Shown here in pieces: positions 2,372 through 64,000 of a stretch of 64,000 bases of DNA. The stretch's first letter is position 1, and every line of letters starts with the position of its first letter. The stretch is from Lophium mytilinum (taxonomy: Eukaryota; Ascomycota; Dothideomycetes; Mytilinidiales; Mytilinidiaceae). The stretch lies in contig MU004186.1 in NCBI GenBank assembly GCA_010093605.1, positions 79,765 through 143,764 on the forward strand, given 5' to 3'. The translations under genes and the position numbers were made by a program. Under the pieces are notes generated by a model, which was not told the origin of the DNA, made no database searches, and saw nothing but the letters and a program-made list of their open reading frames with translations.

Positions 2372-3577
2372 CTACCTCCCCTTCGCCAACCTCGCCAACA
2401 CGGCCTTCCCTGCATTCGCATCATTCTTCCTCCCCAACTCCCCACTAATCCACTCGCCCACTTTACTCAGTTCCTCCAAATTCACCCCTGTGCTTGCACC
2501 CAAGCTATTCACTAAATGGACGAGATCCTCCGTCGCAACGTTCCCCGTCGCGCCAGGGCTATACGGACATCCTCCTAGTCCACTCACGCTCGCATCAAAC
2601 GTCCTGACACCATGCTCCAACGCCACAACCGTATTCACAAGGGCCATGCCGTAGGTGTCGTGGAAATGCAGCGCGAGATCCTTGGTTTCGACGCCCGCCT
2701 CCTTCAGCACTTTCAAAAGAGCAGCCGTTTTCGGCGCCGTGCCCATACCCGTGGTATCACCAACGCTTATTTCGTCGGCTCCCATTTCAAGCAAGCTAAC
2801 GGCGAGCTCTGCGACGCGGTGCGGGTCTGTGTCCGGTCCTTCATAGGGGCAGCCTAGTGCGACGGAGATGTAGGCACGGACGGGGAGGGCGAGGCTCTTT
2901 GCGCGGGACATTATGGGCTCGAATCGTTTTAGGGACTCGGCGATGGAGCAGTTTGTGTTCTTTTGCGTGAAGGACTCGGTGGCGGCGGTGAAGAGGGAGA
3001 GTTCGATCTTGGGGGTTTGTTGGGGGGAGATTTCGGAGGCATTCGGGTCTTGCGAGGATGTGTTCTCAGCAGGAGGGGTGCCTGGGGGCGTTGGGTACGC
3101 CTCTTCTGCTGATTTGGAGGTATTGAAGGAGTCGTAGGTGGTCATGAAGTTGTCGAGGCCTTTGATATTTGGGAGGAGGAATTGGTAGGTTATGGGTTCT
3201 TTGGAGGCGGGAGGGGTTTGAAGGATGTGTTGCAGGATTTCAGAGGAGTTCGCCATCTGTATATATCAGAATGCTGCTTGGAGGGGAGGGGTTCATTAGA
3301 GGTTGCTTACTTGAGGCACCCATTTTGGTGCTACGAAAGATCCAGCTTCGATTGTCTCCAGTCCTGTACGTGCTAGTCTCTCTATAAGCTCCATCTTTGT
3401 CGCCAGCGATATGCTCTGCTTCTCGTTCTGCAGTCCATCCCTCGGTCCGACCTCGACGATGCGGATGTGCTCTGAACTACGGGGCGCGGAGCCTGGCGTG
3501 ACTGTCGCGAAGCCCCTCCGGCATGGATGGCGGGCCGCGAGTCGCGCGAGGCGGAGACAGGTGTATCGAGACGACAT
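2372..3577 (-). CDS. hydroxymethylglutaryl-CoA lyase, mitochondrial
   Basis: Cleaves HMG-CoA to acetoacetate and acetyl-CoA in leucine breakdown. There are two exons, 3577-3311 and 3256-2372, with a 54-nt intron (donor GTAAGC, acceptor ATACAG); the join gives KWVPQ-MANSS, matching the conserved KWVPQM region of the family. The product is 383 aa. The first about 30 residues are rich in Arg/Ala/Ser without acids, fitting a mitochondrial presequence. The HMGL-like TIM barrel follows: the [11 protein letters not shown] metal and catalytic Arg motif, NCSI..S..RF, CPYEG, the HFHDTYG metal-binding histidines, and [12 protein letters not shown] with the catalytic Cys loop. It ends in AKGR with no peroxisomal SKL-type signal. 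Compared with animal enzymes there is an extra low-complexity, Pro/Ser/Thr-rich insert of about 35 residues (around residues 130-165). The gene is divergent from DPH1. Confidence 0.95.
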
Positions 3578-3749
3578 AGTGGCTGGTGGGAGAGACGAAA
3601 GAGTGAATGTAATGTGGCAGCTTGGTGTTTGTATAGTCTACGCAGCTTGGTGGTTCGAGTTCGCCGCGGGGAAGACGAGGAATTGCGGGGGCCGAAAATT
3701 GCCGCCGCAGACTTCATCCCACCTCGACAAAACACCAGATTATACGAAT
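3578..3749. promoter_or_regulatory. shared divergent promoter of HMG-CoA lyase and DPH1
   Basis: Only 172 bases separate the two start codons on opposite strands, so both 5' leaders and core promoters must lie here or overlap the neighbouring gene. No TATA box is evident. The DPH1 frame is open upstream and contains an in-frame ATG near 3613, which would add about 46 residues unlike the family. I therefore use the ATG at 3750. Confidence 0.5.
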
Positions 3750-5246
3750 ATGGAGGAGGACCGGGCAGCCACGAATCTAGGGCCGGACGTGGAGGGGGAC
3801 ATGAACGGAGAGGAGAAGATAGTGCAGAAACAGCCCAAGAGGAGGTTCGTGGGCAGAAGGACTGCGGAGAAGGCCGCTGAACAGGCAGCGCCAAATGCGA
3901 ACATCGAGGACAGCAGTGCTATACAAGGTAGAAGCTACCATACAACGCCTACAGTTTATATATACTTACGAGATGAATCAGTTGCCCAACCCCGAAGAAC
4001 AGCCCGCGCCCTGAACAACATCCCCCCGTCCATTCTAAACGACCCCGATATCAACGACGCCATTTCTCTCCTCCCTCCCAATTACAACTTCGAAATTCAC
4101 AAAACAATCCATAGGATACAGACCAGTAGCGCTAAAAACATCGCCCTCCAGTTTCCAGAAGGCCTCCTTCTCTTCGCGACCACAATCTCCGATATCCTCA
4201 CCCAGTTCTGCCCTGGAACTACTACTACCATTATGGGCGACGTGACCTACGGCGCCTGCTGCATCGACGACTTCACTGCTCGAGCCTTGGGGTGTGACCT
4301 TTTGATACACTACGCGCACAGCTGTCTGATCCCGGTAGCCGTCACTAAGATCGCGACGCTGTATATATTCGTCGCCATAAGTATAGACACAGCGCACCTC
4401 CTAAGCACCATCACGCGAAACTTCTCAGTGGGAAAGACAATAGCCCTGGTAGGAACCATACAGTTCAATGCGACCATCCACGGCATTGCCCCCGACCTAC
4501 GTAAAGAAGGCTACAACGTCATTGTTCCCCAAATCTCTCCATTATCAAAAGGCGAGATCCTAGGGTGCACATCCCCAGCCATGTCGCTGAACCCCACCCC
4601 ATCTACCAATCCAAAGAGGCCATCAAAGCCGGAAGATATGCTGGTACCAGATTTACTGTTATACCTAGGAGACGGCCGATTTCATCTGGAGTCTGCTATG
4701 ATCGCTAACCCGACTCTGCCTGCGTATCGCTACGATCCCTATAGCCGCCGCTTGACGCACGAGGTGTATGAGCACGCATCCTTGCACTCGCTCCGTAGTA
4801 CTGCCATTCGTACCGCGCGGAAGGCGAAAACTTGGGGTATCATCCTTGGCTCGCTCGGCCGACAGGGGAACCCCCACACCCTCACACTCATCGAGAACCA
4901 CCTCCGCGCGAAAGGACTTAAATGGGTGAACCTACTCCTCAGCGAGATCTTCCCGGGTAAACTGGCAATGATGGGCGATGTGGAAGCTTGGGTGCAGATC
5001 GCTTGTCCGAGGTTGAGTATAGACTGGGGCTATGCGTTCGAACGGCCGTTGTTGAGTCCATACGAGGCGCTTGTTGCGCTAGGGGCGAAAGAGGCGGGGT
5101 GGTTGATCGAGGAAGAAGAAGGCGCAGTAGGAGAAGTAGGAGGTGGTAGAACGAAGGGAGTGTATCCGATGGACTTTTACTCGAAAGAGGGACTGGGGAG
5201 GACGACAGAGGCCGGGGCAGTGTTAGAGGTAGGAATAGCAGCCTAG
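3750..5246 (+). CDS. DPH1: diphthamide biosynthesis protein 1 (2-(3-amino-3-carboxypropyl)histidine synthase subunit 1)
   Basis: With Dph2 it forms the Fe-S enzyme that moves the aminocarboxypropyl group of SAM onto the target histidine of translation factor eEF2, the first step of diphthamide synthesis. The core is clearly Dph1: the [11 protein letters not shown] start of the family, [40 protein letters not shown] and [13 protein letters not shown]. The three cluster cysteines (in GACC, HSCL and ACPRL) are all present. A 54-nt intron at 3928-3981 (GTAGAA...AATCAG, branch-like CTTAC) is inferred because removing it joins the acidic N-terminus directly to [13 protein letters not shown]. It is a multiple of three and stop-free, so the unspliced frame is also open. 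Spliced length is 480 aa. A Glu/Gly-rich insert near the C-terminus ([13 protein letters not shown]) is unusual. Confidence 0.93.
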
Positions 5247-8535: not shown

Positions 8536-9762
8536 ATGGCGACCCTCAAGTTCGGATTGAATATCCAAAAGAAGCAACAGAAGGTCCCCAATCGCCCAGC
8601 CCCTGCGAAACGAAAACCCATCTTCGACGAGGAAGACGAAGACGACGAGTCCAGTCACACAACCAAATCCTCGAACGGGGCCGAAGAAATTGGGGTCTTC
8701 GACCTTGACGAACCCAAACCCAAACCTAAACCGCCTATCGCTTCTCCGAAAACCGCCTCACAACCCAAACCTTCCAAGCTAGCAAGCGCTCCGACACTAA
8801 AGCAATTGGTGGACGATGACCCCACCGCTGGCTATGGAGATCTGTCAACCCTCCAGACTTCCATGAAACATGCCGAAGACGCCCTTGCCGTCGACCCCTC
8901 TATATACGACTACGACGCTGCGTATGACGCGATTCACACCAAGACCGCCGCTAAAGCCGCCGCCGAGCGCGAGGATGCGGTACAGCGCAGGCCAAGATAC
9001 ATGGAGAAGGTAATGGAGTCGGCCGAGGTTCGCAAACGGGATCAACTGCGAGCGAAGGATAAACTGCTACAACGAGAGCGGGAAGCTGAGGGTGACGAAT
9101 TTGCGGACAAGGAGAAATTCGTGACGGAGGCGTACAAGGCGCAGCAAGAGGAGGTTCGGAAGGCTGAGGAGGAAGAGAAGGCGAGGCAAGAACTGGAAGA
9201 GAAGAAAAGGAAAGGGAAGGGTATGACGGGGTTCTACCGTCAAATTATGGATGAAGATGAGGAGAGACATCGGGCGGCAATGGAGGCGGCAAGTCTGGCG
9301 GGGAAGGCGGGGGTCCAGAAGGTGGAAGAGGCCCCGAAAGAGAAGTCGGAGGCGGATATTGCGAAGGAGCTCAATCAGAAGGGTGGGAAGATCATCATCA
9401 ATGAAGAGGGGCAGGTTGCGGACAAGAGACAACTGCTCACGGCTGGACTTAACGTCGTTGCGAAACCTAAAGCTGCTACTGCGGCGTCTACGACGGCTGC
9501 TCGACCGGGTGGCTTGCAGCCAGGCTACAAGGGTCGTGAAGGTGTGCAGAGATCAGTGAGAGAGAGACAATCGAAGATGATGGAAGAACAGTTGGAGCAG
9601 GCGGCGAAGCGAGCTGCTGACGACGAGGCCGAAGAGAGGCGGAAGCTTGAACACACATCGAAGAGCCGCAAAACGGACTCCGACATCAGCGGTGCAAAGG
9701 AGCGGTATCTCCAGCGGAAACGGGAGGCTGCTGCCGCTGCCGCTGCTGGAAAAGGATCGTAG
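8536..9762 (+). CDS. nuclear speckle splicing regulatory protein 1-like (DUF2040)
   Basis: A 408-residue single-exon protein. The N-terminus (MATLKFGLNIQKKQQK) matches the short FGL..KK signature of the NSRP1/CCDC55 family. An acidic patch, a Pro/Lys linker, and then the conserved DUF2040 block follow: DPSIYDYDAAYD, RPRYMEKVMESAEVRKRD, ADKEKFVTEAYK and GMTGFYRQIMDEDEERH. The middle (roughly residues 140-245) is a highly charged Glu/Lys/Arg coiled coil, and the tail contains further charged helices and an Ala run. In metazoans the family regulates alternative splicing in nuclear speckles; a role in splicing in this fungus is inferred from the family. Convergent with the GFA-domain gene downstream. 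Confidence 0.85.
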   Translation: MATLKFGLNIQKKQQKVPNRPAPAKRKPIFDEEDEDDESSHTTKSSNGAEEIGVFDLDEPKPKPKPPIASPKTASQPKPSKLASAPTLKQLVDDDPTAGYGDLSTLQTSMKHAEDALAVDPSIYDYDAAYDAIHTKTAAKAAAEREDAVQRRPRYMEKVMESAEVRKRDQLRAKDKLLQREREAEGDEFADKEKFVTEAYKAQQEEVRKAEEEEKARQELEEKKRKGKGMTGFYRQIMDEDEERHRAAMEAASLAGKAGVQKVEEAPKEKSEADIAKELNQKGGKIIINEEGQVADKRQLLTAGLNVVAKPKAATAASTTAARPGGLQPGYKGREGVQRSVRERQSKMMEEQLEQAAKRAADDEAEERRKLEHTSKSRKTDSDISGAKERYLQRKREAAAAAAAGKGS

Positions 9763-40500: not shown

Positions 40501-43050
40501 AGGATAAATTGACTGACCTAGCCTCCTTGAGTGCTCTCCAAGAGTAACTCAAAATATCCTTCGTCGTGATATGTGAGTCAGCTTCTACATCATCTGGTAC
40601 ATGGCCTTCTGGCGCATCGTTGCACAAGATGTCTTGGACGCAATTCCACACGTCATGTAATGACATATATAGTCGGGAATGCAAATTTCTCCATGAGTCT
40701 AGGCACTCTCGCGATCCCGCTTCTAGCATCGAGTAGAAATCAACACGCTCCACAATGAATCTTCGGTACATCAGCTTTGTGATACATTTACTATCATGTA
40801 GACTTACCTGATGCTAGCGAGAACGCCGTGTGCAGGGTATTTGTTCACCGCGACGGAAAGATTTTGTCGTGCAATTTCAACAGTCTTCTCTAGTTGCTCC
40901 GCCAGATGGTCGATGATTGTCCACTTGGACAGCCACCACTCGTCATGTTCCCCAACGATGCTTCGAAGAGTAATTTCATCATTAGCTTGAGAATACAAAA
41001 GCTCGTAGGCTCGTGCAACCCCATCGGCATGATCAGCCCGGCCAGTCCGTAGCATGATTTTCTCAGCTCGTTCGATAAATCGTAGAATCTCTACAGAACT
41101 CGACCGCGGCATCTCTTCTGGTTGAGACGAGGGTGGCGTATGATTGCCTCCAGTTGGTGCCTGACCGTCTAGATGCTTTGCGATTCTTCGGTTACCTTCG
41201 TACCTAAGTCTGAGAATAGAAGCTGCCACACTATGTACCTCATCGAAGGGGTCTAGCAGGAGGTCTAATAACGATCGTATTAGTTTTGGAGTGTAAATAT
41301 CCCTCCGATGATACCACTTCTTATCTCCTTGAGCTTGCTTTGCAAGGCTCGTGTGAGACACGGTAGGGTCTAGACCTGATCTGACTACGATGTTTAGCGA
41401 CTTCAGCGCAGTTATATGCCGCTGGTATGACGCAGTCGGCCGAAGTTCAGAGCCGAGGAAGCTGATGTACCACGAAATGAAATCGACATGGTAATTCAAG
41501 ATACCACACAGCTCGTCTTTGTTAGTTTCCGTCTTTCGAATCCCATCAGAACTTTTACTAGAGAGCGACTTTAGAGCTGCTGCGTTTCCTTCAATCGCTT
41601 TGCTCAAAGTCGCTGTAGCCGACCTCAGGCGGTCAAAAAGCCGTTGGACCCGACTCAATAGTTCGCCGCGAAAGTTTGCATCCGTGTCAGCATGGAGATG
41701 AAATATGTTATCCTGAAGACATCGGAGGCTGCCTCTGGTGATTGGCTTCGTGATACTTGCAGAGGAAACCAGAAGCGAAATTCCTGCGAGCCTGGCTTCC
41801 GGATTGGAATGAGATAATAGTTTTCCAAATACAATATCTGGAACGAGCAAAACACCTGCACGTACTTCGATAGTCTTAAGTTTGGCTTGATCTAATTTCG
41901 TCAGCAGTGGAGCTTTCTTCGGCTTGGGTTGCATGTAACGGACCGATGTCTTGAACCATTCCGAGGTCTTGGCCAACTTGAAGTGCAGCAAAGATTATGC
42001 TGATTGTTACCGGATCATCCAGTCGGCCGCTAGTATCGTCGTTGTCTTCCGCTACAGCAGACGATGTCTGCCCTAAGTAACGGTAGAATTGGAGATGATG
42101 TAAGAAGAGCATGTAGTCATCAAAACCCAACCTAAAGACTTCGGGAAAGACATGGTGTCGAAATTCCTGAATACTCTCCGGAGAGGCCCGTATGCTGTTT
42201 TCGAAAGGCTCTACCCATAGTGGAAGATCCGTGCTAATTCTAACATCGAAAGCGTTGCACTCTTGAGCTTTTGCAAGGAAATGAGCGACTAAGTGTCCAG
42301 CGGCAAGCGCGGTGTCGTTGTGTTGTACCCAGTCGAGGAATTTGGCGAGAAGGATCTGGCCGAGCTCTACTCGAGGTGGACGACATTCCGAATATACAGC
42401 AATCCTACTGGACAAATCAATGAGCTGATCGATGGAGACCAAATCTTTGGATATGAAGTGTGCTAGTGCTTGTAATGCAGGCTTGACTTTCCGGTGATTT
42501 TGGTACCTAGAAATGAGATTGACGGCTCTCAAGACTGCTTGATCACGGATTTGGAAGGAACATGGAGCGTTTTCTCTTTTCAACACACTAGTAAAAACAA
42601 CGAGCAGCTGTCTCATAGGCTTTGGTTTAGCTTTGTCGAAAAGGTTCAAGTAAATGCCAAAGAGCCTCGACCAAATCTGTTCTACCCAAATGACATTGCG
42701 GACAATCTCAATTTTGGCACCCTGACATCGCTCGATAATTCCGCAGAAGGCAACGCATGCGGTCGCGCGATGCGATGGTGATATTTCTGCATTTTCAGCA
42801 GTCTCTAACAGTGCATAGAGGGCATCTTTCACTATCCTAGTCATATTCATTAGTAGAGGACAGTATACATATAAGCAGTGTAGTAGATGGAAGCCCATAC
42901 GCCATGGATAATTCAAACTTACCTCAGTTGGCTTTCATCGACGACTGTAGACGAGTCGAGGCGAGCTATCAGATGAGAAGATTCTGTACCTAAGTGACGG
43001 ATGGCGTTCTCATCGACGAGAACGGTTGTAGAGGATGGCGGTTCAGCCAT
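37563..43050 (-). CDS. TRM732: tRNA 2'-O-methylation partner, TRM732/THADA family (DUF2428)
   Basis: In yeast, Trm732 binds the methyltransferase Trm7 to direct 2'-O-methylation of tRNA position 32; THADA is the animal counterpart. Eight exons fit in frame: 43050-42923, 42836-41944, 41891-40808, 40760-40241, 40195-39897, 39833-39304, 39255-38447 and 38390-37563, giving 1,696 aa. Introns are 45-86 nt. The whole protein is HEAT/armadillo-like helices. Diagnostic stretches are HLHADTDANFRGELLSRVQR, SELRPTASYQRHITALKSLN, the family signature TRRSAGIPSLITGI in exon 5, and WPIRNCGLMLFKALIERLLG in exon 6. The least certain join is exon 2 to 3 (donor GTCCGT, acceptor ATTAG), chosen because it restores frame. 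The start MAEPPSSTTVL follows a short leader. Confidence 0.92.
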
Positions 43051-50990: not shown

Positions 50991-50998
50991 CTTCTTAA
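50991..50998. repeat. left target-site duplication of the hAT element
   Basis: CTTCTTAA, directly before CAGTG. The same 8 bases stand at 63580-63587 directly after the right end. T at position 2 and A at position 7 fit the hAT target preference. Confidence 0.85.
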
Positions 50999-51105
50999 CA
51001 GTGAAGGAACTGGACTGGAGCCATTTTAGACTAGACTAGATAGAGGCACTTAAAAAAAGCATTAGACTGGACTAAGATTCTATTTCGATAGAGTGGATTT
51101 AAGGC
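50999..51105. repeat. left terminal and subterminal repeats of the hAT element
   Basis: The 21-bp terminal repeat is followed by further copies of the short motif GACTGGA/GACTAGA (at about 51012, 51028-51040 and 51064-51074) and by GAGTGGATTTAAGGC at 51091-51105. The right end carries the same last motif at 63530-63544 and CTAGTCCAGTCCAG. Short repeated subterminal motifs are where hAT transposases bind. Confidence 0.6.
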
Positions 51106-51470
51106 TATAGATAATCCTAGAGCTCTAGTTATATATATAGATATACTTATATAGTATTAAGGTTAATTTTTATAAGGCTTAGAGGTCCGCAACACCTTAG
51201 TAGTTTATAATTCTTAGCCCCTTATTAGCTAACCTATATTCTAAGCTAACTAACTAGCCTATAATACTAGCCTTACTATTTTTATACTTACTATTTTTAT
51301 TTATACTTACTATTTTCTATATACTTACTATACTCTATATACTTTTTATTTTCTATATACTTTCTATTTTACTTAGTATATAGCTAAGGCGTTAATTAAG
51401 GTTATCTACTATAGATTTTAATATTATCTATTAATTCTATTAATACTAATAACTTTATTACTATAGCGTA

Positions 51471-51530
51471 TACTTATTACTATACTTATTACTATACTTA
51501 TTACTATACTTATTACTATACTTATTACTA
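51471..51530. repeat. 12-bp tandem repeat, five units
   Basis: TACTTATTACTA repeated five times without interruption inside the AT-rich island. Confidence 0.95.
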
Positions 51531-52930
51531 CGCTACTATTATAGCTAAGAGTTACCTACTTTTTTAATACTTAATTACCTCTATACTTAGTACTTAACCC
51601 TCTAGTTATATTTCTTCTACTATTATTCTAGCCCCTATATTAATTAATCTAGCTTATAATATTACTATAAACCTAGACTATATTTATATTAATAGAAGAA
51701 TATATACTTAGTATATATAACTAGCTAAGCCTATATAGGCTATAAAGTAATATATCTTATATATATAGAACTAGAGTAAAAATATCTATTTAAAAAATAG
51801 GCTCTTAAAGTAATCTAATCTTTATTATTACTACCTCTATAAGAGAGAGAAGTAAAAGTAGAAGCTTTCTATTATTTCTATAGGTAGGTTAACTATAATA
51901 GATTACCTTATTAAGGTATATAAGCTAGATAAGGAAATAAATATATTCTAAATATTAGAATAAGAACCTTTACTAAAGTATACTACTATAAAGTTACTTT
52001 ATATTATATTAAATTTTAAAACCCTTAAGAGCCTACTAATTTAATAGGTTATCTACTACTATATTACCTTCTTCTAATTTAAAAATATATACTTCTAATA
52101 AGTACTAGATTTTCTAGCCTTAGGCATTCTTAAATATATACCTAAGGCTAGTAAGATAATTTAAAAGTAGATAATAAATATATAGAAGAAAAGAAAAAAT
52201 ATACTAAAATATATCTATTTATTAATATATTACTATTTACTATTATATTACCTTTTTATTATCTCTAACCTTCTATAGATATAAACTTAAGACCGCGCAT
52301 AGTACTATATCTATCTTCTTTAATCTTTAAATATTACTAAATAGATACTTTATTATAGGTGTTTATTTCTACTTTATTAATAAGGCCGGGTAATAGTATA
52401 TAGCGGTTGCAGCACTTTAAAAGGTACTTAGTAAGTATAGTAGAGAAAATATTATATATAGCTTATTAGTAGTAATATAGAACTATAGTATATAAAAGAA
52501 TATTAGCTTCTTTATAGAAGATAATGCAATAAATAATAATAATAGTATAGATACTATACTATAGATACTATACCTATAAATAACTATTAAATAATAGAAG
52601 GTATATTAATAATATCTTATAGGCGCTTTATCTATTAATAATAACTAACTAATAGTAGGCACGCTAGCTATAGTACTTTAGCTATATTATTAACCTATAC
52701 GCATAGAATTTTATTATTAAAAAGAATACTAATAGAATCTATTAATAAATTAAGGCTGCATATATAAATTAAAATTATAGTAAGGTTTAATAGCTTTAGA
52801 AGAAGTATAGAGCTATTAAATTAATATAGAATATTATCTAATATATCTATAATAGTTTTTAGTAATATAGTATCTTCTATTATATATAAAAGAGTAGTTC
52901 TCTTATAGAATAGAATAGGCTTAAGGTATA

Positions 52931-53310
52931 TATTTATTCTTTCTATTTATTAATTAGTCTTTCTATTACTATTTAGCCTTACTATAACTATTTTACTATA
53001 TACTTCTTATTTTACTATAGACTTTCTATTTTACTATATACTTCCCGTTTTACTATATACCTCTAGTATTTATTTTTTCTATTTATTAATTAGTTTTTCT
53101 ATTACTATTTAGCCTTACTATAATTATATAGACTTTCTATTTAGCTATATATACTTTCTATTTTACTATATACTTCTTATTTTACTATATACCTCTAGTA
53201 TTTATTCTTTTTATTTATTAATTAGTTCTTCTATTACTATTAGCCTTACTATAATTATATAGACTTTCTATTTAGCTATATATACTTTCTATTTAGCTAT
53301 ATATACCTTA
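52931..53310. repeat. three tandem units of about 132-136 bp
   Basis: Units begin TATTTATTCTTTCTATTTAT at 52931, 53067 and 53199. The first two are 136 and 132 bases and end TATACCTCTAG; the third is partial. They differ by scattered transitions and small internal shuffles. Confidence 0.8.
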
Positions 53311-54173
53311 AAAGAATAAAGATATAAAGTATATAGTAAAATAGAAGGCTATATAGTTATAGTTATTATATTATTTCTTAGTATTCTCTTAGTAGTTATT
53401 AAGGTTAGGGGTTTTTATATGCACGGACATTATATAATCTCCGGGCCGAGAGTTCTTCTAGCGCCTAAGGTTCTACCGGCGCCTAGAGTTTTACCGGCGT
53501 GTACTTAACTATATAGTAGGCTTATAGCTAGAGCCTTTTTTCTCTCTATATAACCTTATTAATAGTAATATAACTCTTTTCTTAGCTATAAACCTAATAT
53601 AGTAAGGCTAAATTAATACTACTAAAGCTTTACTAACTAATTATACCTCTATACTATACCTTTATAGAGTAGCTACTAACGCGTTAATAGCTTATCTAGA
53701 ATAACTAAACCTATTAAAACTTATTATTTATAGCTATTAGTTATTTTCTTAACTATTATAAGTATATATAAGAGTTTTATAATATATATATTCTACTAAA
53801 TAGCGCTAAAAAGCTTAAAAATAATAATATTCTTATAGAAACTTAATAGTAATAGCTTAAGTACCTATATATAAATCTAGAGCTATTCTATAAGACTATC
53901 TTAATAGTAGAGGGCTAGAAGATATTACTTACTAATTACTTTATAACTCTTAACTAGTTAGTTAATATACTTAACGCGTTAAGAAATAACTTTATAGACC
54001 TTTTATAAAAAGTATAATAATATATTAAGACTAATATATATTAGTATATATCTCTTTCTTTCTACTACTAATAGAATAAGCTAATAGGTAGTAGGTATCT
54101 ATCTAATTACGCCTTAATAGTATAGAATAAGGCTAATAAGTACTATTTTTTAACTAATAAGGAATTACCTATA

Positions 54174-54393
54174 TATTATAGCTGTAATGTAACCTCTATT
54201 ATAATATATTTCTAATATATATAATAGTATTATATACTCTCTAGTATATAATTACTATTATATAACTAGGCTTAGCGCTAGCCTTACCTACCTCTTAGCT
54301 AGCGCTCTGCGCCCTTCTCTCTCTTTTATAGCTATTTTATCTATATATACTAATATTAGGTCTTTTCTTATAATCTACTATTATACTATAATA
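54174..54393 (+). repeat. left LTR, 220 bp
   Basis: Begins TATTATAGCTGTAATGTAAC and ends TTATACTATAATA. Aligns over its full length with the right LTR with no length change; most differences are C/T or G/A, such as GCTGTAATG against GCTATAATA. Confidence 0.9.
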
Positions 54394-57300
54394 TAAAGTA
54401 GCTACTCTTCTAGCTTCTAGAAGTTTCTAGAAGTATTTTTTTCTATCTATCTACCTACCTATATATATACCTAGCTAATTTAATAGGCTAAAATTTTAAT
54501 ATATAAACCTAATACCCTCTATATTAATATAAGGGAGGCTTAAAAAAAGGCTCTATAATCTTATAGTAAGAACTCTATATACCCCGCTAATTAGAGGCGC
54601 GCAGGCCCTATATACCTACTTACTATTACGCGTAACTAACTAATATAAGCGTAGTTACTTTCTACTAATAGAGTAAGAACTATATATACCCTATTAGTAA
54701 TAGGCTAGTATATAGGCTCTATATACCTACTTACTACTATTATATATAACTAACTAGTCTATATATAGTTATTCTATTTTTATTTACTAATTAAAGGCAG
54801 CCGCTAAGTATAGTACTAGCTACTCTAGAAAGTATACCTACTTCTAAGCTTTTATAGAGAACCTATACTCTCTACCTTATACTAATCTTTCTTATTAGAT
54901 AGTTAATAAATACTTACTAGTAAAGATATAAATAATACCCCTAAGACTAGCTATACTAAGCTATAGTAGAAAAACTCTAACCCTATATAGTATAGCTATA
55001 CTAAGCGCGCAGCCTATAGATTTACCTTCCGGCGGTAAAGCTAATAAGTATCTAGTTATTCTTACTTATACTTCTACTCTCCCCTTTAATCTATAAGCTA
55101 TTTAATCTACTTTTATATTTAACTCTTAAGAGGCGCATAAGCTTAATTACTAAGAAAAGAAAGCCGCCTATAAAATAGGCGGCGGAGGAGTATTATAATA
55201 CTAACTAACTATAACTCTAGAAGCTCTTACTACGCGCGCTAAGAAATTTAATAATCTAGAACTAGATATTTACCTTCTACTAAATTAATTTAGTACTAAT
55301 CTACTATAGAGCTAAGCCTATTATAACCTTACTAACTCTACTAAGTAGAATACTAATAATAAGGCCTATATAGATTAAAGCAAAGATAAAGAGAACTTTA
55401 AGTTATTTACTAAAATATCTATACCTTAAGCTATCTAATTTACTAAACCTCTAGTTAACCTAACTACTTTATTCTTCTTTTAAATTCTAATTACCTTAAA
55501 GGACTAGGTTATTACCTCTACTACTAATACTATTATAATTCTAAATATCTACCCTAGCTAAGAATAGCCTAATATAGCTAACGCAGGCGCAAGTTCTACT
55601 AGAACTAGCGGCTAACTACCTAATTATTAATAGTCCCTTCTTATAGATAATAATAATAGCATAGTCTTTACTATTAACTAAGCTAGAAATAGCTAATCTA
55701 TTAATATTACTATTAATAATGTAGAAGAGCTCTATAATATAGCTTAAGATAAATATATTAGTATTTATGCTACACTACTTAACTATTACTAAGAACTAGG
55801 TAAGTTATATAAAGATATTAGAAATATAGTAGTAGCTATTTAATAGAAAGATAATAAGATTATATAACTTTAAAAATAGAATGCAGGTATATTAAATAAG
55901 GTTAAACTTAAAAACCTCTATAACTAATATATAAAGCTCTATTACTAGGTAGCTAAAATATATACTAACGCTACTAACTTTACTAATAAGCGTAATTACC
56001 TTACTAAGTAGCTAGTAGATAAGTATAAGAAGAATAATATTTAGGCTATTTTTATTACTAAGCTTAGTATTAAGATTAAAGGCCTTACTACTAAGGTAGC
56101 TAAGGTTACCTTTTACCGCGATTAATACTAATAGTAGCGTAATACCTTCTATGCCTAAGGTATAGAATATAAGAAGAAGTATAAGTAAGCTATATAGTAG
56201 TAACTCTAAATGCACTTCTAATAAGATAACGCTACTATCTATAGTAACTATAGCTACCTCTCTAATAAAGGTAATAATAATAAGCTATCTAACTATAACT
56301 ACTTTACCTAGCCTAACTTCTTATATAATCTAAACGCCTAACTTACTATAAACTTATATTAGCTATATACTAAGTTCTATAATCTATAGAAGTTTAAAGA
56401 ATATAATAACTAGTCTAAGTATAAATTATAGAAAGCTTACGCCTATACTATCTTCTATAATAAGCCTTAAGACTTCTATAATAAATAAGCTAAGCTTAAG
56501 TATATTAAATTATACTATATAGAATTTACTAATAGTGTAGTATATAATTGCACCTAATAGAACCGCCCTATAAATAATAACTTTAAAATAGTTAAAGAGA
56601 TATTTAAGATAATAGACCCTTACTTTATAATTAAAGATAAGGCTATAGCTATAAATAATAAGCTCTATAGCTAGTAGGCGTATATAAAGTATAATAAAAA
56701 ATAGTCTATTTTTCTTCTTTAATTCTAGAAAATAATTTCTATAGATAATAATAGAGAGATAGACTTTATTAATTAAAAGGGATAGCTTAAGCACCTTATT
56801 ACCTCTAAACTCTAGACTTAGGTCTTTAGCGCCGCTAATAACTATATATTCTAGCTAGAACTAGTTACTACTATTAACCGCGCAGTATTATATCTTGCTA
56901 GTAAGTGTAAATACGCCCGCAAATAGTAATATTCTAATAGCCCTTTCTAGAATAATAGTAATAGCTTAAAATACACTAATAAGCTATTTACTAATAAGTC
57001 TAATTATAGCTTCTAATAGGACTTTAACTATAACTCTAAGATATACTTATTATATTCTATTATAGATAATAGCTTACGCCGCTAAGACTATAATAGTAAT
57101 ACCCGCTGTATTTATCTCCCTTCTATAGTAACTAAAGTCCTTAGTAAATAGAATAAGAATATCTACTATAACTATCTTAAAATAGAATATTATGTATTAA
57201 ATCGCGACTATTTCTATATAAAGAACGTCCCTCCCTCTAAGAAGATAGTATAATAATACCTTATCTATTTCTAAAAAGGGCTAGATTTAAAGCTCTCTAT

Positions 57301-58589
57301 AATTTACTATATAGATAATTCTATATTTAATATTAAGCCTAGTAACGCCCTTACTACTATTAACTATAATAGTAGTAATAATAACGCTATATAAGAAAAC
57401 TTTTTAGATAGTAAGAATTTTCTCTAGGCTCTAACTATAGTTATAGTTAGAGTCTAGTAGATATTTATCTAAGTATATTAGTCGCCTATATTTATAAACT
57501 AGAGTAACTACCCTCTAAGCTAGATAAACTCTAGCTCTTAGCCTATACTATTAATTCTTCTAAGAAAGTTATATAAGAAAAATAGCTTAACTTTAAATAT
57601 AGAATCTATACTTCTACTACTAGCATTATTAATAGTAGATACTTAATAGATATAGGCTACTTATATCTAGCTTTTATATTATATATATTTATAAAAATCT
57701 ATAAGCTTATAATAGTTCTAATTATAAAGCTAATACTACTGCGCCTTACTAATAGCTAGTTAATACTTATAGTTACGCATAAAGCTTAAATTACGCTATT
57801 ACTTAGAGCCTATATTAAATATCTATAGTGCTATATTACTAACCTTTAGGGCTATAATATTATTCTTAGTATACCTTAGTTTAAGTAATATAAGCCGCGT
57901 TCTATATAGAGAGAATATATACTAGATTTTAACTCTAACTACTATATAAGTAACTATCTATATATAGATAGCTACTAATATATCTAGAGTAATAGCTATA
58001 ACTAAGATATTACCTATAAAGAAAAAAAGCTATATAATAGTACTCTATATAAAATTATTAACTATTACTATAAGCTTAGCCTTAACCTTAATAAAGCTAA
58101 TAACTTTCTTACTAAATACTAGAAGCTTACCCGTAAAGGTAAGAAAGACGCTATTATCTAACTATAGAATAATAACTTTAATAAGCTTAATACCTATAAG
58201 AATAAAGCTACTTATACTATAGCTAATAATTCTACTCTCTATAGGCTTACTAAGCTTAATAATGCTTTAGCTAAGAAATAAGCTATATTTATATCTAACC
58301 TATTTATAATTAACCTAGCTAACTATAGAAAGTTCTTTAATAAAATAAATAGGCCTTCTATTACTAATAAAGAGATTAAGTAGCTTCTTCTAGATTAGCT
58401 TTATTATCTCTATAACGCCTAGAACCCCTAAGCAGCTAATATATTACCCCCTTACTATAATATAGATTATATAATTAACCTCTAGCCTAATAGTAAGCCG
58501 CCTATATAGAAGGTCTATAGCCTCTCTAGAGACTAAGCTACTATTATAAAAGTATTTATTAATAAAATACGCTCTAAAAGCTTTATTTA

Positions 58590-59170
58590 ACTAAGCTTAT
58601 TCTTCTTTACTACCCCTATACTTATTATTAAGAAACCTAGAGGCGGCCTTTATATCTATATAGACTATAGAGGACTAAATAATATTATAATTAAGAGCTA
58701 TAATATACTACCTTTTATTAAAGATACGCTTATACTACTAGCTAAAGCTAAATACTATACTAAGCTAGATATTATTAGCGCTTTTAATACCCTATATATT
58801 AAAGAGGGCGATAAGTATAAAATAGTATTTCTAATATAATAGGGCCTATTTAAATTTATAGTCCTTCTATTTAGCTTATATAATGCCCCTAGTTTATTCT
58901 AAGCCTATATTAATAATATACTCTATAAAGATCTTAACTACTACTATATAGCCTATATAAATAATATACTTATATTTAGTAATAGCCTTAAAGAATATAA
59001 GAAGTATATTATTTCTATAGTTATATAACTAAAAGACGCCGGCCTCTTTCTAGATATTTATAAATCTAAATTTACTATTTAAGAAGTTAAATACTTAGGC
59101 GTTATTATTAGTATTAATAGTATTTATATAGACCCTTATAAGGTCTAAATAGTACTTAACTAGCCTACCT
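58590..59170 (+). pseudogene. reverse transcriptase domain of the Gypsy element
   Basis: Readable through the mutations: a KKPRGGLYIYIDYRGLNN block, AKYYTKLDIISAFN, a KEGDKYK block, and the catalytic box at 58951-58977, where the usual two aspartates now read Asn-Asn (AYINNILIF). Asp to Asn is exactly a G-to-A change, so RIP has removed the active site as well as the frame. Confidence 0.85.
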
Positions 59171-61529
59171 CTAGAAACCTTAAAGATATTTAAGCCTTCT
59201 TAGGTTTCTATAACTTCTATTATTATTTTATTACTAGGTATTCTAAATTTACTATACCCCTTTCTATACTTATATTCTTAGCTAAGAAATTATTTAAGTT
59301 CCCTTAGAAGAATAATAGAGATAAAGTACGCGCGTTTATATATATTAAAGAATACTTTAGAAATACTTCTTAGCTAGCCCTATAGAATCTAGATTATAAA
59401 ATATAGATAGAGTATAACTTCTTAGACTATACTATTACTGCCATGCTATTATAAATATAACTAGACGGCACCTTATAACCTATTACTTTTATATTATAAA
59501 GAATAACGCTATAGTAAATTAATTATACTATCTATAATAAAGAACTTCTTACTATTATCTTAGTATTTAAAGACTAGCGCCTAGAACTAGCTAGCTAAGG
59601 CTAGAAGTATAGCAGCCCTATTAATATTATATCTAACTATAAGAATCTTTAAACGTTTATAATAACTAAGCGCCTTAATTACTATTAGGCCCGCTAGGCT
59701 AAATTCTTAGCTAAATTTAACTTTAAGATTATATATAAACCTAGTAAACTTAATAATAAACTAGATCTTCTTACTAGGTAACCTAGTAATAAACTATCTA
59801 AAGGTAACGCTTACTATAACTATTAGAAGTAAGTTATACTTAAACCTACTAACTATAAGCCTAATATATATTACGCCGTTAACTTAGCCTATATATTTAC
59901 TAAGAACGCTCTAGAGTATATAGTTATAGATCTTACCTTAATACTCTATAACCTTAGTAAATTTAATTAATCTAACAGCGCTAATAAACTTTAGCTTATA
60001 GTTACTTGCACTAGATAAATATAATTATAACTAGAGCCCCTAGATAAGATAAAGGATTCTAGAATAACCTCTATAGTAAGAGATAAGATAAAGAATTCTT
60101 CTACTAATAATAGATAAGCTTCTAATGCTAAGCTATATAATATATTAAAGCTAGTTCTAACTAGTAATTAAATACTATAATAAGTAAAGAAAGCCTTTTA
60201 AACTAATTCTATTATATAAGCAATTAAATACGCTAAATAATATAATAAATAATAACTACTAATATAATTCTACTAAGACTACTACTTATAAATTAAGCTT
60301 AGGGATTATAATATAATTAATAACTTTCTCTATATTTAGAAGAAGCTATATATACTAGTTATACTAAAGCTATATACTATAATTATCTAATCTATATATA
60401 AATCTAAACTAGCTAGTTATACTAAAATAACTTCTATATACGCTAGGCTAAGTAATTACTATTACTAGCCTCTTATAATATCTAATATTAATTAGTACGT
60501 AGGTGCTTATATAACTTATTAGCGCTTAAAGTACTTTAGAGAAGGTAAGTAAGGCCTTCTTTACCTACTACTAATTCCGCATTACTACTAGTATAATATC
60601 TTAGTTAATTTTATTAGACCGCTACCTATCTATAAATAATAGGGTAGGTAATATAAGTATATTATAGTTATAGTTAATTAACTATCTAAGAAGAGAAAGT
60701 TTATTCTACTTAATTCTATAGAAGTTAAGCTAGTTATTTAAGTATTTATTAAATAGGTTTAGTATAAGAAAGATTATCTATATACTATTATATTTAATTA
60801 AGGCGCGCAGTTTATATTATATTTCTAGAAACGCCTCTACGCCTATATTAGTATCTTACCTAAGTTATTCTTATTATTTTACCCTAAAATAGATAGCTAG
60901 ACTAAGATTACTAATATAGTACTTAAGTAATATCTACGCGCCTATATTAACTATAAGTAAGATAACTAAATAGATCTTCTATCTATTACTAAATTTAAGG
61001 CTAACTACGCTAAAATAATAATAGGCGTATTACTATTTATAGCTACTAAAGGCTATAACCCGCGCTTAGAACTAGAACTAGTAGATAACTCTATTAAACT
61101 AAAAGGACCCTAGAAATTACTTTAAGAGAAAGCTAACGCCCTAGCTAAGTAGATTAACTAACTCTAGCTCTCTCTATAAGATAAGCTTACCTAGGTCTAA
61201 GTATAATAAGCTTACTATATAAACCTTAAGTATAAGCCTATACCTAAGTTTAAAGTTAGTAATAAGGTTATACTTAATGCTTATAATATTAAGATATAAT
61301 ACCTAAATAAGTTACTTAATTATAAGTAGCTAGGCCCTTATAAGATTATACGCGTTATTAATAATAGCGCCTATAAGCTTATACTACTATAAACTATAAA
61401 AGGACTATTTAATATTTTCTATCTATAGCTACTCTATAGAATTACTTATAAGCCGCTTAAAGAATAGATATATAATAAACCTAGCCCTATTAAAGTTAAC
61501 TAGAAAGGTTTTAAATAATAGAATATAGA

Positions 61530-61710
61530 TAATATTATTAACTTATAGATTAATAAAGTAATAATTAATTCTACTATAAGTAAAAAAGGCCTCTTATAAT
61601 ATAAAATCTAATACACCGGTTACCCTAACTAGAACGCTAAACCTAAGTAGAAATTATATAAAAGTACGTTTAATTACTATAATATTATAATAGACTACTA
61701 TTATTAATAC
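61530..61710 (+). pseudogene. chromodomain of the Gypsy element
   Basis: Near the end of the pol region the reading INKVIINSTISKKGLL, then YTGYP and NAKPK, follows the chromodomain pattern (strand, basic turn, the K.TGYP box with its aromatic residues, and a final helix). In-frame TAG/TAA replace the expected Gln and Trp codons. Such domains guide integration toward particular chromatin marks. Confidence 0.75.
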
Positions 61711-62190
61711 TTTAACGCTGCTAGACCTTATAAGTCTTTTAAGAAACTTAAGTACTAGAAACCCCTACTAGCTATAATTATATTAAGACTATAGAAGTAG
61801 ACCTTAAACTAGATATTACTAAAGCTAACTAGCGCTAGCTAGCTAAGTAATTACTAACTTCTCTAGTTAGAAGACGCTAACCTAGTAGACTACTAGGTAA
61901 TAGATAATATAAAGGTTTATAAGTTTTAACCTCTATACTAATTTATATTACGCCTATATAGTACCTATAGATTATAATATCTATAGTTTATAATACTAAT
62001 AGTTTATAATACTATATAAAAGACTAAAAGAGTTATAAAGAATTATAGTAAGACTATATAATTAATAGAAAGACTAATTAAGGAAGAACTAATTAAGAAA
62101 AGACTAATTAGAAAGAAGTACTTGCGCATAGTAAGTATAAAATAGAAAGGCTAAAGTATAATACTAGAAGAAGCTCTATATATAGTTTCT

Positions 62191-62205
62191 TTTAGAGGAG
62201 GGTAG
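62191..62205 (+). other. polypurine tract of the Gypsy element
   Basis: AGAGGAGGGTAG lies directly against the right LTR, the position of the plus-strand primer in LTR retrotransposons. It is one of the few G-rich stretches left in the island. Confidence 0.8.
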
Positions 62206-62425
62206 TATTATAGCTATAATATAACCTTTATTATAATATATTTCTAATATATATAATAGCGTTATATACCCTCTAGTATATAATTACTATTATATAACTA
62301 GGCTTAGTGCTAGCCTTATCTACCTTTTAGCCGGCGCTCCGCGCCCTTCTTTCTTTCTTATAGCTACTTTATCTATATATACTAATATTAAGTCTTCTCT
62401 TATAATCCGCTATTACACTATAATA
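62206..62425 (+). repeat. right LTR, 220 bp
   Basis: Begins TATTATAGCTATAATATAAC and ends TTACACTATAATA, followed by the duplication CTATA. Same length as the left LTR. Confidence 0.9.
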
Positions 62426-62430
62426 CTATA

Positions 62431-63110
62431 TACTACGCCGCTATTATCTTAAACTCTTTAATTAAGATAAAATAGTTTAAGGGATAGTAGAATAGGCACT
62501 CTATTAAGAAGAAATATATTAAGATTATAAAGAAGTTTATTAAGAAGTACTAGTAGAGTAGCTACTATAGTAATATATCTTATCTAGAACTAGAATCTAT
62601 ACCTAAGTCTACTCTAACGCCTACGCCTATATCTACGCCTACGCCTATATCTATACTAGCACCTTATATTTAATAGCCTTAAATATATATATCTATATAA
62701 AATTATAAGTATATTAAAACTATATATAGTAATAATAATAGTAATAAGCTAGTCTCTAATTTCTATAAAGAATACCTTAATACCTCTACTATACTAATTA
62801 TATAGGTATATAGCTAGAAGTTACTTAGTAAGAATAGTATATTAGAGCCTCTTTTTATAGTAGATAAGATAATTCTATAGTAGAATAGTAGATACTATTC
62901 TATACTAGACCTAGCCTAGTTTATACTTAATATTTTTATAGTGCCGCCGATATCTAATAACTATAAAAGGTTATTTAGTAGAGTATCTATTATACTAGAG
63001 AGATAATATTAATAGCTTAGAATAGATATACTTAAGGTAAATAAGTACCTAAGGTTAGCCTATAGGCCGGTACTAAAAAATATATTTAATAATAATATAG
63101 GCTATATATA
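62431..63110 (+). pseudogene. C-terminal part of the hAT transposase, with dimerisation domain
   Basis: Through the RIP stops, the plus strand reads a FYKEYLN start near 62760, a region that would have held the WW pair (now TAG TAG), RYYSILDLA, FIVPPISNNYKRLFSR near 62935-62985, and IDILKVNKYLRLAY ending at about 63063. This follows the order of the hAT family dimerisation region (RYP.L...A.D.L..P.....ER.FS......R..L..... E...CL). It confirms the superfamily and shows that the transposase ran left to right. Confidence 0.75.
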
Positions 63111-63558
63111 GTTAGGTAGTATATTATATATATTACTAGCTATACTTAAAGTAATAGTAGTAGAATAACTATAGATATTAAAACGCGTAGAGGTATAGTA
63201 TAAGATAGAGAGTAATATTAATAAAAAAGAAGTAGAGAAAAAAGAGGCTATATTAAAAGCTATATTAAAAGAGGTAGTATATAGAGTAGCTAAGAATACT
63301 AAGTTTAATAATAATAACTTATTTATAATAGCTAATAATAACTAGAGAGAGCTATATAAAATAGAAAGGCTAATTAATAGCTATATAAATTAGAGAGTTA
63401 TTAAACCTTAAACTCTAGAATATCTTAGCGCTAAACTATTTTAGAAGGCTACTAACTATTTTAGGTAACCCTTAGCCCTATTATAGAGCTTCTAGAGCTC
63501 CTAGAGCTCTATAGAAATTGCTATAGATGGAGTGGATTTAAGGCAAAATCCACTCTAG

Positions 63559-63587
63559 TCCAGTCCAGTTCCTTTACTGCTTCTTAA
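63559..63587. repeat. right terminal repeat and target-site duplication of the hAT element
   Basis: 63559-63579 is the reverse complement of the left terminal repeat except for one T in place of C. CTTCTTAA follows at 63580-63587. Confidence 0.85.
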
Positions 63588-63886: not shown

Positions 63887-64000
63887 CAGTAAACCCCCGT
63901 TATAGTGATACGGGTTTTTTCAAGGGGGTGTATCACTGTATAGAGAGTATCACTGTATCTAATGTCACGTGCTGGAGATTTGTAAGCCAGACGCCTCCTA
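63887..64000. mobile_element. left end of a pogo/Fot1-type (Tc1-mariner) transposon, cut by the window edge
   Basis: CAGTAAACCCCCGTTATAGT follows a TA dinucleotide (63885-63886). Terminal repeats of fungal pogo/Fot1 elements typically start with a CAGT.AA.CCCCG.TATA-like sequence after a duplicated TA. The next 60 bases contain GTATCACTGTAT twice. Composition is normal, so this element is not RIP-mutated over the part seen. The other end and any transposase lie outside. Confidence 0.5.

What the first reader, a model, noticed from the sequence alone, without database searches (positions are those of the whole stretch)
50991..63587. A hAT transposon carrying a complete Gypsy chromovirus, with both sets of boundaries intact
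The 12.6-kb AT-rich island is not just an isochore: both ends carry 21-bp inverted repeats (20 of 21 identical) and an exact 8-bp target duplication, and inside it a full LTR retrotransposon has its own exact 5-bp duplication. The order of insertions is therefore readable: hAT first, Gypsy into its transposase second, RIP on both. Seen: ends, duplications, LTRs, domain remnants. Known: CAGTG ends with 8-bp duplication mark hAT. Inferred: single-insertion history.
Basis: partly seen in the sequence, partly recalled or inferred. Interest (0 to 1): 0.75.

Follow-up and report, generated by a model that had tools for sequence, protein, structure and literature searches.

The report
Dead fungal transposon holding two retrotransposons
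In a fungal chromosome an old cut-and-paste transposon was later hit by two retrotransposons and then mutated to death, most likely by the fungus's own genome defence; the layering is unusually easy to read but is an ordinary kind of event.

Summary
The island has 21-bp inverted ends (20 of 21), an exact 8-bp target duplication CTTCTTAA, and inside it an LTR retrotransposon with an exact 5-bp duplication CTATA. Four other long elements with related ends lie in the same genome. Three (C3, C16, C18) run straight through the point where the window has the Gypsy, and the left reading frame continues in phase on the right. So the Gypsy interrupted one hAT-type element.

The history has a third insertion: 53364-53599 is a solo LTR of another family, with at least 39 other copies, and the C16 copy shows its site empty.

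Domain searches support Ty3/Gypsy with a Tf2-1-type integrase end; the chromodomain is by eye only. No database search recognised the heavily mutated hAT protein; that call rests on ends, 8-bp duplications and motif resemblance. The host is a dothideomycete close to Lophium mytilinum. Nested, RIP-mutated transposons are known from fungi: a clean case, not a new kind.

The parts
50991..50998 (.). left copy of the 8-bp target duplication CTTCTTAA
   Evidence: sequence
50999..51019 (+). left terminal inverted repeat of the hAT element, keeps CA/TG
   Evidence: 20 of 21 with the right end; outer 75 bp keep CA/TG
50999..54173 (+). left part of the hAT element (3,175 bp, including the solo LTR)
   Evidence: main matching pieces on C3, C16 and C18 at 71-82%
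52931..53303 (.). tandem repeat array inside the hAT (132-bp period, about 2.8 copies)
53364..53599 (+). solo LTR of a second LTR retrotransposon (family B here), nested in the hAT; 4-bp duplication TAGT at 53360-53363 and 53600-53603
   Evidence: 39 other matches, 8 same-strand pairs 6.96-6.98 kb apart (40 of 44 candidates scored); boundaries; site empty in the C16 copy
53601..54173 (+). decayed transposase frame, middle part, up to the Gypsy insertion point
54169..54173 (.). left copy of the Gypsy target duplication CTATA
54174..54393 (+). 5' LTR of the Gypsy (family A here)
   Evidence: 41 rows of at least 189 bp in the genome counting both window LTRs, plus 15 short reverse-strand rows (40 of 62 candidates scored)
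58591..58836 (+). reverse transcriptase remnant
   Evidence: PF00078 E 3.5e-4, 20.8 bits, below the 29.6 cut-off; the next piece 59002-59337 gave no hit
59350..59760 (+). RNase H remnant
   Evidence: PF17917 E 1e-6, 29.3 bits, over cut-off 24.8; PF17919 E 7.4e-7, 29.6 bits, just under 29.8
60421..60999 (+). integrase core remnant, by eye only
   Evidence: frame 60301; two pieces without Pfam hit
61246..61530 (+). integrase C-terminal SH3-like domain of Tf2-1 type
   Evidence: PF24626 E 2e-7, 31.4 bits, over cut-off 30
61549..61740 (+). chromodomain-like stretch, by eye only
   Evidence: alignment A3 with four pieces of other inserts; no Pfam or PDB hit
62206..62425 (+). 3' LTR of the Gypsy; 21 of 220 sites differ from the 5' LTR, all transitions
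62426..62430 (.). right copy of the Gypsy target duplication CTATA
62431..63579 (+). right part of the hAT element: C-terminal part of the decayed transposase frame, then 3' region
62908..63075 (+). stretch resembling the hAT dimerisation domain, by eye
   Evidence: no Pfam hit
63559..63579 (-). right terminal inverted repeat
63580..63587 (.). right copy of CTTCTTAA

Best explanation
A hAT-type DNA transposon of about 4.08 kb (4,324 bp between the ends less the 236-bp solo LTR and its duplicated 4 bp) inserted here and duplicated 8 bp. A family-B LTR retrotransposon inserted into it and was reduced to a solo LTR. A full-length family-A Ty3/Gypsy element inserted in the transposase frame, between two codons, duplicating 5 bp; which of the two retrotransposons came first is not shown. 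RIP, the fungal defence that turns C into T in repeats, then mutated all three to about 25% GC and broke the frames, but spared roughly the outermost 75 bp of the hAT. Shown: boundaries, nesting, uninterrupted sister copies, frame continuity across the insertion point, loss of CA/TG. Inferred: hAT superfamily, chromodomain, RIP as the mutator, solo-LTR formation by LTR-LTR recombination.
For: Both sets of ends and duplications. Four more long copies: exact 8-bp duplications in C16 and C7 and C18, 7 of 8 in C3. C3, C16 and C18 are contiguous at the Gypsy point. The same protein frame runs up to and past that point in the four copies compared. LTR-A has 10 same-strand pairs 7.99-8.07 kb apart, the window's included. 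Solo LTR: 40 matches including the window's own, empty site in C16, no match to that stretch inside the C3, C16 or C18 copies. Gypsy domains.
Against: No Pfam match for any read-through of the transposase or of the upstream left region; no relative among the 7,995 and 7,993 scored candidates of a 5.8-billion-protein set; no relevant PDB match; fold model useless, mean pLDDT 34.4; the own-genome search with PF05699 found two places on C21 and not the window. Of the ten ends of the five copies, seven begin CAGTG, two CAGTA (the window's right end among them) and one TAGTA. The solo LTR has a 4-bp duplication, while two other pairs of that family, read by eye, show 5 bp. The chromodomain is not confirmed.
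Confidence: 0.9

Rival explanations
1. The island moved as a unit: the hAT carried the Gypsy as cargo to this site, so the Gypsy inserted elsewhere first.
For: The ends keep CA/TG and an exact target duplication. A second hAT-bounded unit on C7 with an exact 8-bp duplication also holds a piece of the same Gypsy family, and its right hAT end is close to the window's (304 sites, 8 transitions, 1 transversion, besides gaps).
Against: The C7 Gypsy piece has a different downstream junction and differs from the window's at 91 transitions and 22 transversions over 959 sites, so it looks like a separate insertion. None of the copies examined has the same Gypsy junction.
Confidence: 0.04
2. The outer element is not a hAT but another inverted-repeat transposon that makes 8-bp duplications.
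For: No protein-level search recognised a hAT domain, and the fold model was useless.
Against: CAGTG-type ends with 8-bp duplications (recalled as hAT hallmarks). By eye the right part has a stretch like the hAT dimerisation core; a local alignment with the genome's own PF05699-positive frame falls inside that domain, but at E 0.86, among other chance-level rows.
Confidence: 0.05
3. Compatible with the main reading: the hAT copies attract retrotransposons, because RIP-made heterochromatin is a preferred landing place for integrases with a chromodomain.
For: 4 of 5 long hAT copies hold LTR-retrotransposon inserts at different points. Uniform landing would give about 0.02 LTR-A and 0.02 LTR-B rows in the five copies (arithmetic on 41 and 40 rows); observed are one LTR-A insertion each in the window and C7, and one LTR-B in the window.
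Against: Uniform landing is a poor null, since insertions in genes are removed by selection; the chromodomain is unconfirmed; no chromatin data; C18 has no insert.
Confidence: 0.3

Closest known systems
fungal hAT DNA transposons (superfamily; Restless and others, recalled)
   Same: CAGTG-type ends, short inverted repeats, 8-bp target duplication, a long decayed protein frame, short relatives with similar ends
   Different: protein too decayed to be placed; no known family matched in the searches made
Ty3/Gypsy LTR retrotransposons of the Tf1/sushi/chromovirus side
   Same: LTRs, 5-bp duplication, RT, RNase H and Tf2-1-type SH3 domain in that order
   Different: chromodomain only by eye; frames broken
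nested LTR-retrotransposon clusters in RIP-active fungi, e.g. Mycosphaerella graminicola (PMC4522978, passages seen)
   Same: nested LTR retrotransposons in RIP-mutated, gene-poor DNA; families of short MITEs without RIP bias
   Different: here outer element, inserts and uninterrupted sister copies can be read to the base

Membership tests
hAT superfamily | 8-bp target duplication | tested here: met
   exact in 4 of 5 long copies, 7 of 8 in the fifth
hAT superfamily | short inverted ends of CAGTG type (recalled) | tested here: met
   7 of 10 ends of the five copies begin CAGTG, two CAGTA, one TAGTA
hAT superfamily | transposase with the hAT dimerisation domain (PF05699) | tested here: inconclusive
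   no Pfam hit on the decayed frames; by-eye resemblance only
Ty3/Gypsy | LTRs with 4-6 bp target duplication | tested here: met
Ty3/Gypsy | RT and RNase H before the integrase | tested here: met
   PF17917 and PF24626 over cut-off, in that order; PF00078 below cut-off; integrase core by eye only
chromovirus | chromodomain at the integrase C terminus | tested here: inconclusive
   seen by eye at 61549-61740 and in C3, C16 and C7 inserts; no Pfam or PDB hit; of 15 PF00385 places at E up to 0.1 in the genome none lies on the same strand between an 8-kb LTR-A pair; one (C2:1576679, minus) lies between two plus-strand LTR-A rows 18.9 kb apart
RIP | loss of CpA/TpG with excess of TpA in repeats, flanks unaffected | tested here: met
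solo LTR | LTR without internal sequence on either side, flanked by a target duplication | tested here: met
   duplication 4 bp instead of 5

The most novel reading that the evidence does not exclude
RIP kills the body of these hAT elements but spares roughly the outer 75 bp (CA/TG higher than in the next 75 bp at all ten ends of the five long copies), so dead and even retrotransposon-laden copies may stay substrates for a transposase supplied in trans, and thus be vehicles for the retrotransposons inside them.
Probability: 0.07. Interest if true: 0.5.

Novelty: new member of a known kind. Interest (0 to 1): 0.2.

Why it matters
It gives a clean, base-resolved nesting of insertions with natural uninterrupted controls in the same genome, useful for annotating transposons in a dothideomycete near Lophium. 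Four of the five long hAT copies examined carry LTR retrotransposons, which makes insertion into RIP-made heterochromatin testable here with a chromatin map.

Tried and rejected
Protein-level proof of hAT: read-throughs with X at stops and with Q at stops gave no Pfam family; alignments A1 and A4 gave no relatives; PDB profiles gave one unrelated weak row each (5cqq E 0.4; 6wix E 0.53) or none; the fold had mean pLDDT 34.4, so no fold search was run. Comparison with the genome's two PF05699 places gave only chance-level alignments, the one inside the domain at E 0.86.

Composite transposition as seen in C7: not supported, since junction and sequence differ.

Dating by LTR divergence: all 21 differences are transitions, so RIP swamps the clock. 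Transversions only rank: LTR-A median 0 per site over 55 pairs of 11 copies, LTR-B 0.004 over 66 pairs of 12, hAT copies (window, C3, C16, C18; two segments) 0.02-0.14. The LTR copies used were the best-scoring ones fetched (9 of 39 other LTR-A rows and 11 of 39 other LTR-B rows, plus the window's), so these medians lean low.

Empty site CTTCTTAA in related strains: not testable, the genome has no relatives here. Paper search for 'Lophium mytilinum' with 'transposable element': 0 papers.
Full report
Where it is. The window is G000:C6:79765-143764 of a 43.18-Mb, 24-contig genome. The 611-aa frame at 3411-5243, whose relatives are diphthamide biosynthesis protein 1, is 96% identical over 82% of its length to Lophium mytilinum; the next 30 rows of the list are at 69-76% and the named ones are largely dothideomycetes (best 120 of 4,172 listed). 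So the host is a dothideomycete close to Lophium.

The observation. Inverted ends at 50999-51019 and 63559-63579 agree at 20 of 21 and are flanked by exact CTTCTTAA; the Gypsy LTRs at 54174-54393 and 62206-62425 are flanked by exact CTATA. At 500-bp resolution GC is 0.530 in the bin before the left end, 0.198-0.296 inside and 0.500 in the last bin. CA/TG is depleted about tenfold against AC/GT in the three long segments.

Other copies. The end pattern occurs 29 times with up to 3 mismatches, reversed control 1; not all of these places were examined. DNA searches with the two parts and local BLAST define five long copies: the window; C3:18085-30508 (12,424 bp); C16:1309810-1330448 (20,639 bp); C7:930445-941089 (10,645 bp); C18:17338-21149 (3,812 bp). 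Target duplications are exact in the window, C16 (GGTGGCGG), C7 (TTAAAGGT) and C18 (GAGTCGTT); C3 has CTTCAGCG/CTTTAGCG. Five short pairs of such ends, 142-507 bp, look like MITEs; of these one has an exact 8-bp duplication, two 7 of 8, one 6 of 8 and one none.

The left and right parts are one gene. In C3 and C16 the left part ends and the right part begins at adjacent bases (29391/29392; 1329360/1329361), and in C18 the junction is also unbroken. Read with X at stops, the frame runs through the point as LTNKELPVYYAAI in C3, LTNKKLPVYYAAI in C16 and LTNXKLSIYYAAI in C18; in the window it stops at LTNKELPI before the Gypsy and resumes at YYAAI after it. The Gypsy therefore sits inside the frame, between two codons.

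The missed third element. Positions 53364-53599 match 39 other places at 76-92%, of which 8 same-strand pairs lie 6.96-6.98 kb apart (40 of 44 candidates scored). With the uncut left part as query most of these matches run from about 2366 to 2601 of it. Of 11 fetched loci, 4 have a G-rich tract just before the match, as before a 3' LTR, and 6 have a common start CTAG(A/G)TT just after it, as after a 5' LTR. The window copy has neither, so it is a solo LTR. The stretch has no match inside the C3, C16 and C18 hAT copies; read to the base, the C16 copy has the site empty, and the duplicated target in the window is TAGT, 4 bp.

The Gypsy. Pieces give RVT_1 (below cut-off), RT_RNaseH (over cut-off), RT_RNaseH_2 (just below) and SH3_Tf2-1 (over cut-off) in order; other pieces, among them the second RT piece and two integrase pieces, gave nothing. 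Downstream, a stretch resembles a chromodomain and aligns with the same region of the C16, C3 and C7 inserts, but Pfam recognises none of the five pieces and their profile finds nothing in PDB. The element is structurally full length; its longest stop-free stretch on the plus strand is 84 aa.

Inserts in the other copies. C3 has an LTR pair 18473-18668/26909-27104. C16 has four similar LTRs in tandem with three unequal internals. C7 has an LTR pair 931519-931704/939198-939383 and the 3' part of a family-A Gypsy. C18 has none. So 4 of 5 hold LTR retrotransposons, at different points.

RIP and the ends. At each of the ten ends of the five copies the outer 75 bp have more CA/TG (0.054-0.216 per dinucleotide) than the next 75 bp (0.000-0.054); the two C7 ends are the weakest at 0.054, and beyond about 30 bp the C7 left end is Gypsy sequence (the C18 right end was read one base off). 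A taper of RIP at repeat edges is the simplest reading (recalled). PMC4522978 states that RIP typically acts on sequences longer than 400 bp that are at least 80% identical, and that several MITE families showed no bias (passage seen); RIP was not measured on the MITEs here.

Order. hAT before each retrotransposon is shown by nesting and by uninterrupted copies. Mutation of all three shows RIP acting after each arrived; whether the hAT was already RIP-mutated when they came is open. The order of solo LTR and Gypsy is not shown; transversion divergence among the fetched copies is larger for LTR-B than for LTR-A, which would fit LTR-B first.

Novelty. Nested LTR retrotransposons clustered in gene-poor, heterochromatic DNA of a RIP-active fungus are described in PMC4522978 (passages). 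Other literature searches were seen as listings only. The chromodomain as the hallmark of chromoviruses is from PMC3605345 (passages). Nothing here departs from known kinds.

Noticed in passing
   Followed up: yes
L069, L070, L071, L072, L073 (C10, C15, C5, C2, C16): Short elements of 142-507 bp with nearly the same ends as the hAT, 4 of 5 with at least 6 of 8 bases of target duplication: likely non-autonomous MITE relatives; their state of RIP was not measured.
   Followed up: partly
L062-L064 (C16:1311284-1328044): Tandem array with four similar LTRs and three internals of unequal length inside a hAT copy, as from unequal recombination.
   Followed up: partly
L066/L067 (C7:930445-941089): hAT-bounded unit with an exact 8-bp duplication that has only about 30 bp of hAT at its left end and about 335 bp at its right, the rest being retrotransposon and about 1.2 kb of unassigned DNA.
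   Followed up: partly
window 63888-63911: AGTAAACCCCCGTTATAGTGATAC, looks by eye like the end of a pogo/Fot-type element (recalled); one match in the window.
   Followed up: no
window 8536-9759, 40807-41991, 3411-5243: Ordinary flank genes: NSRP1-like, Trm732-like, Dph1-like.
   Followed up: no
C21:559030-559263 and C21:388234-388434 (L001, L002): Two hAT dimerisation domains (PF05699) elsewhere in the genome, the second in an open frame of 192 aa; no significant match to the window's element.
   Followed up: partly
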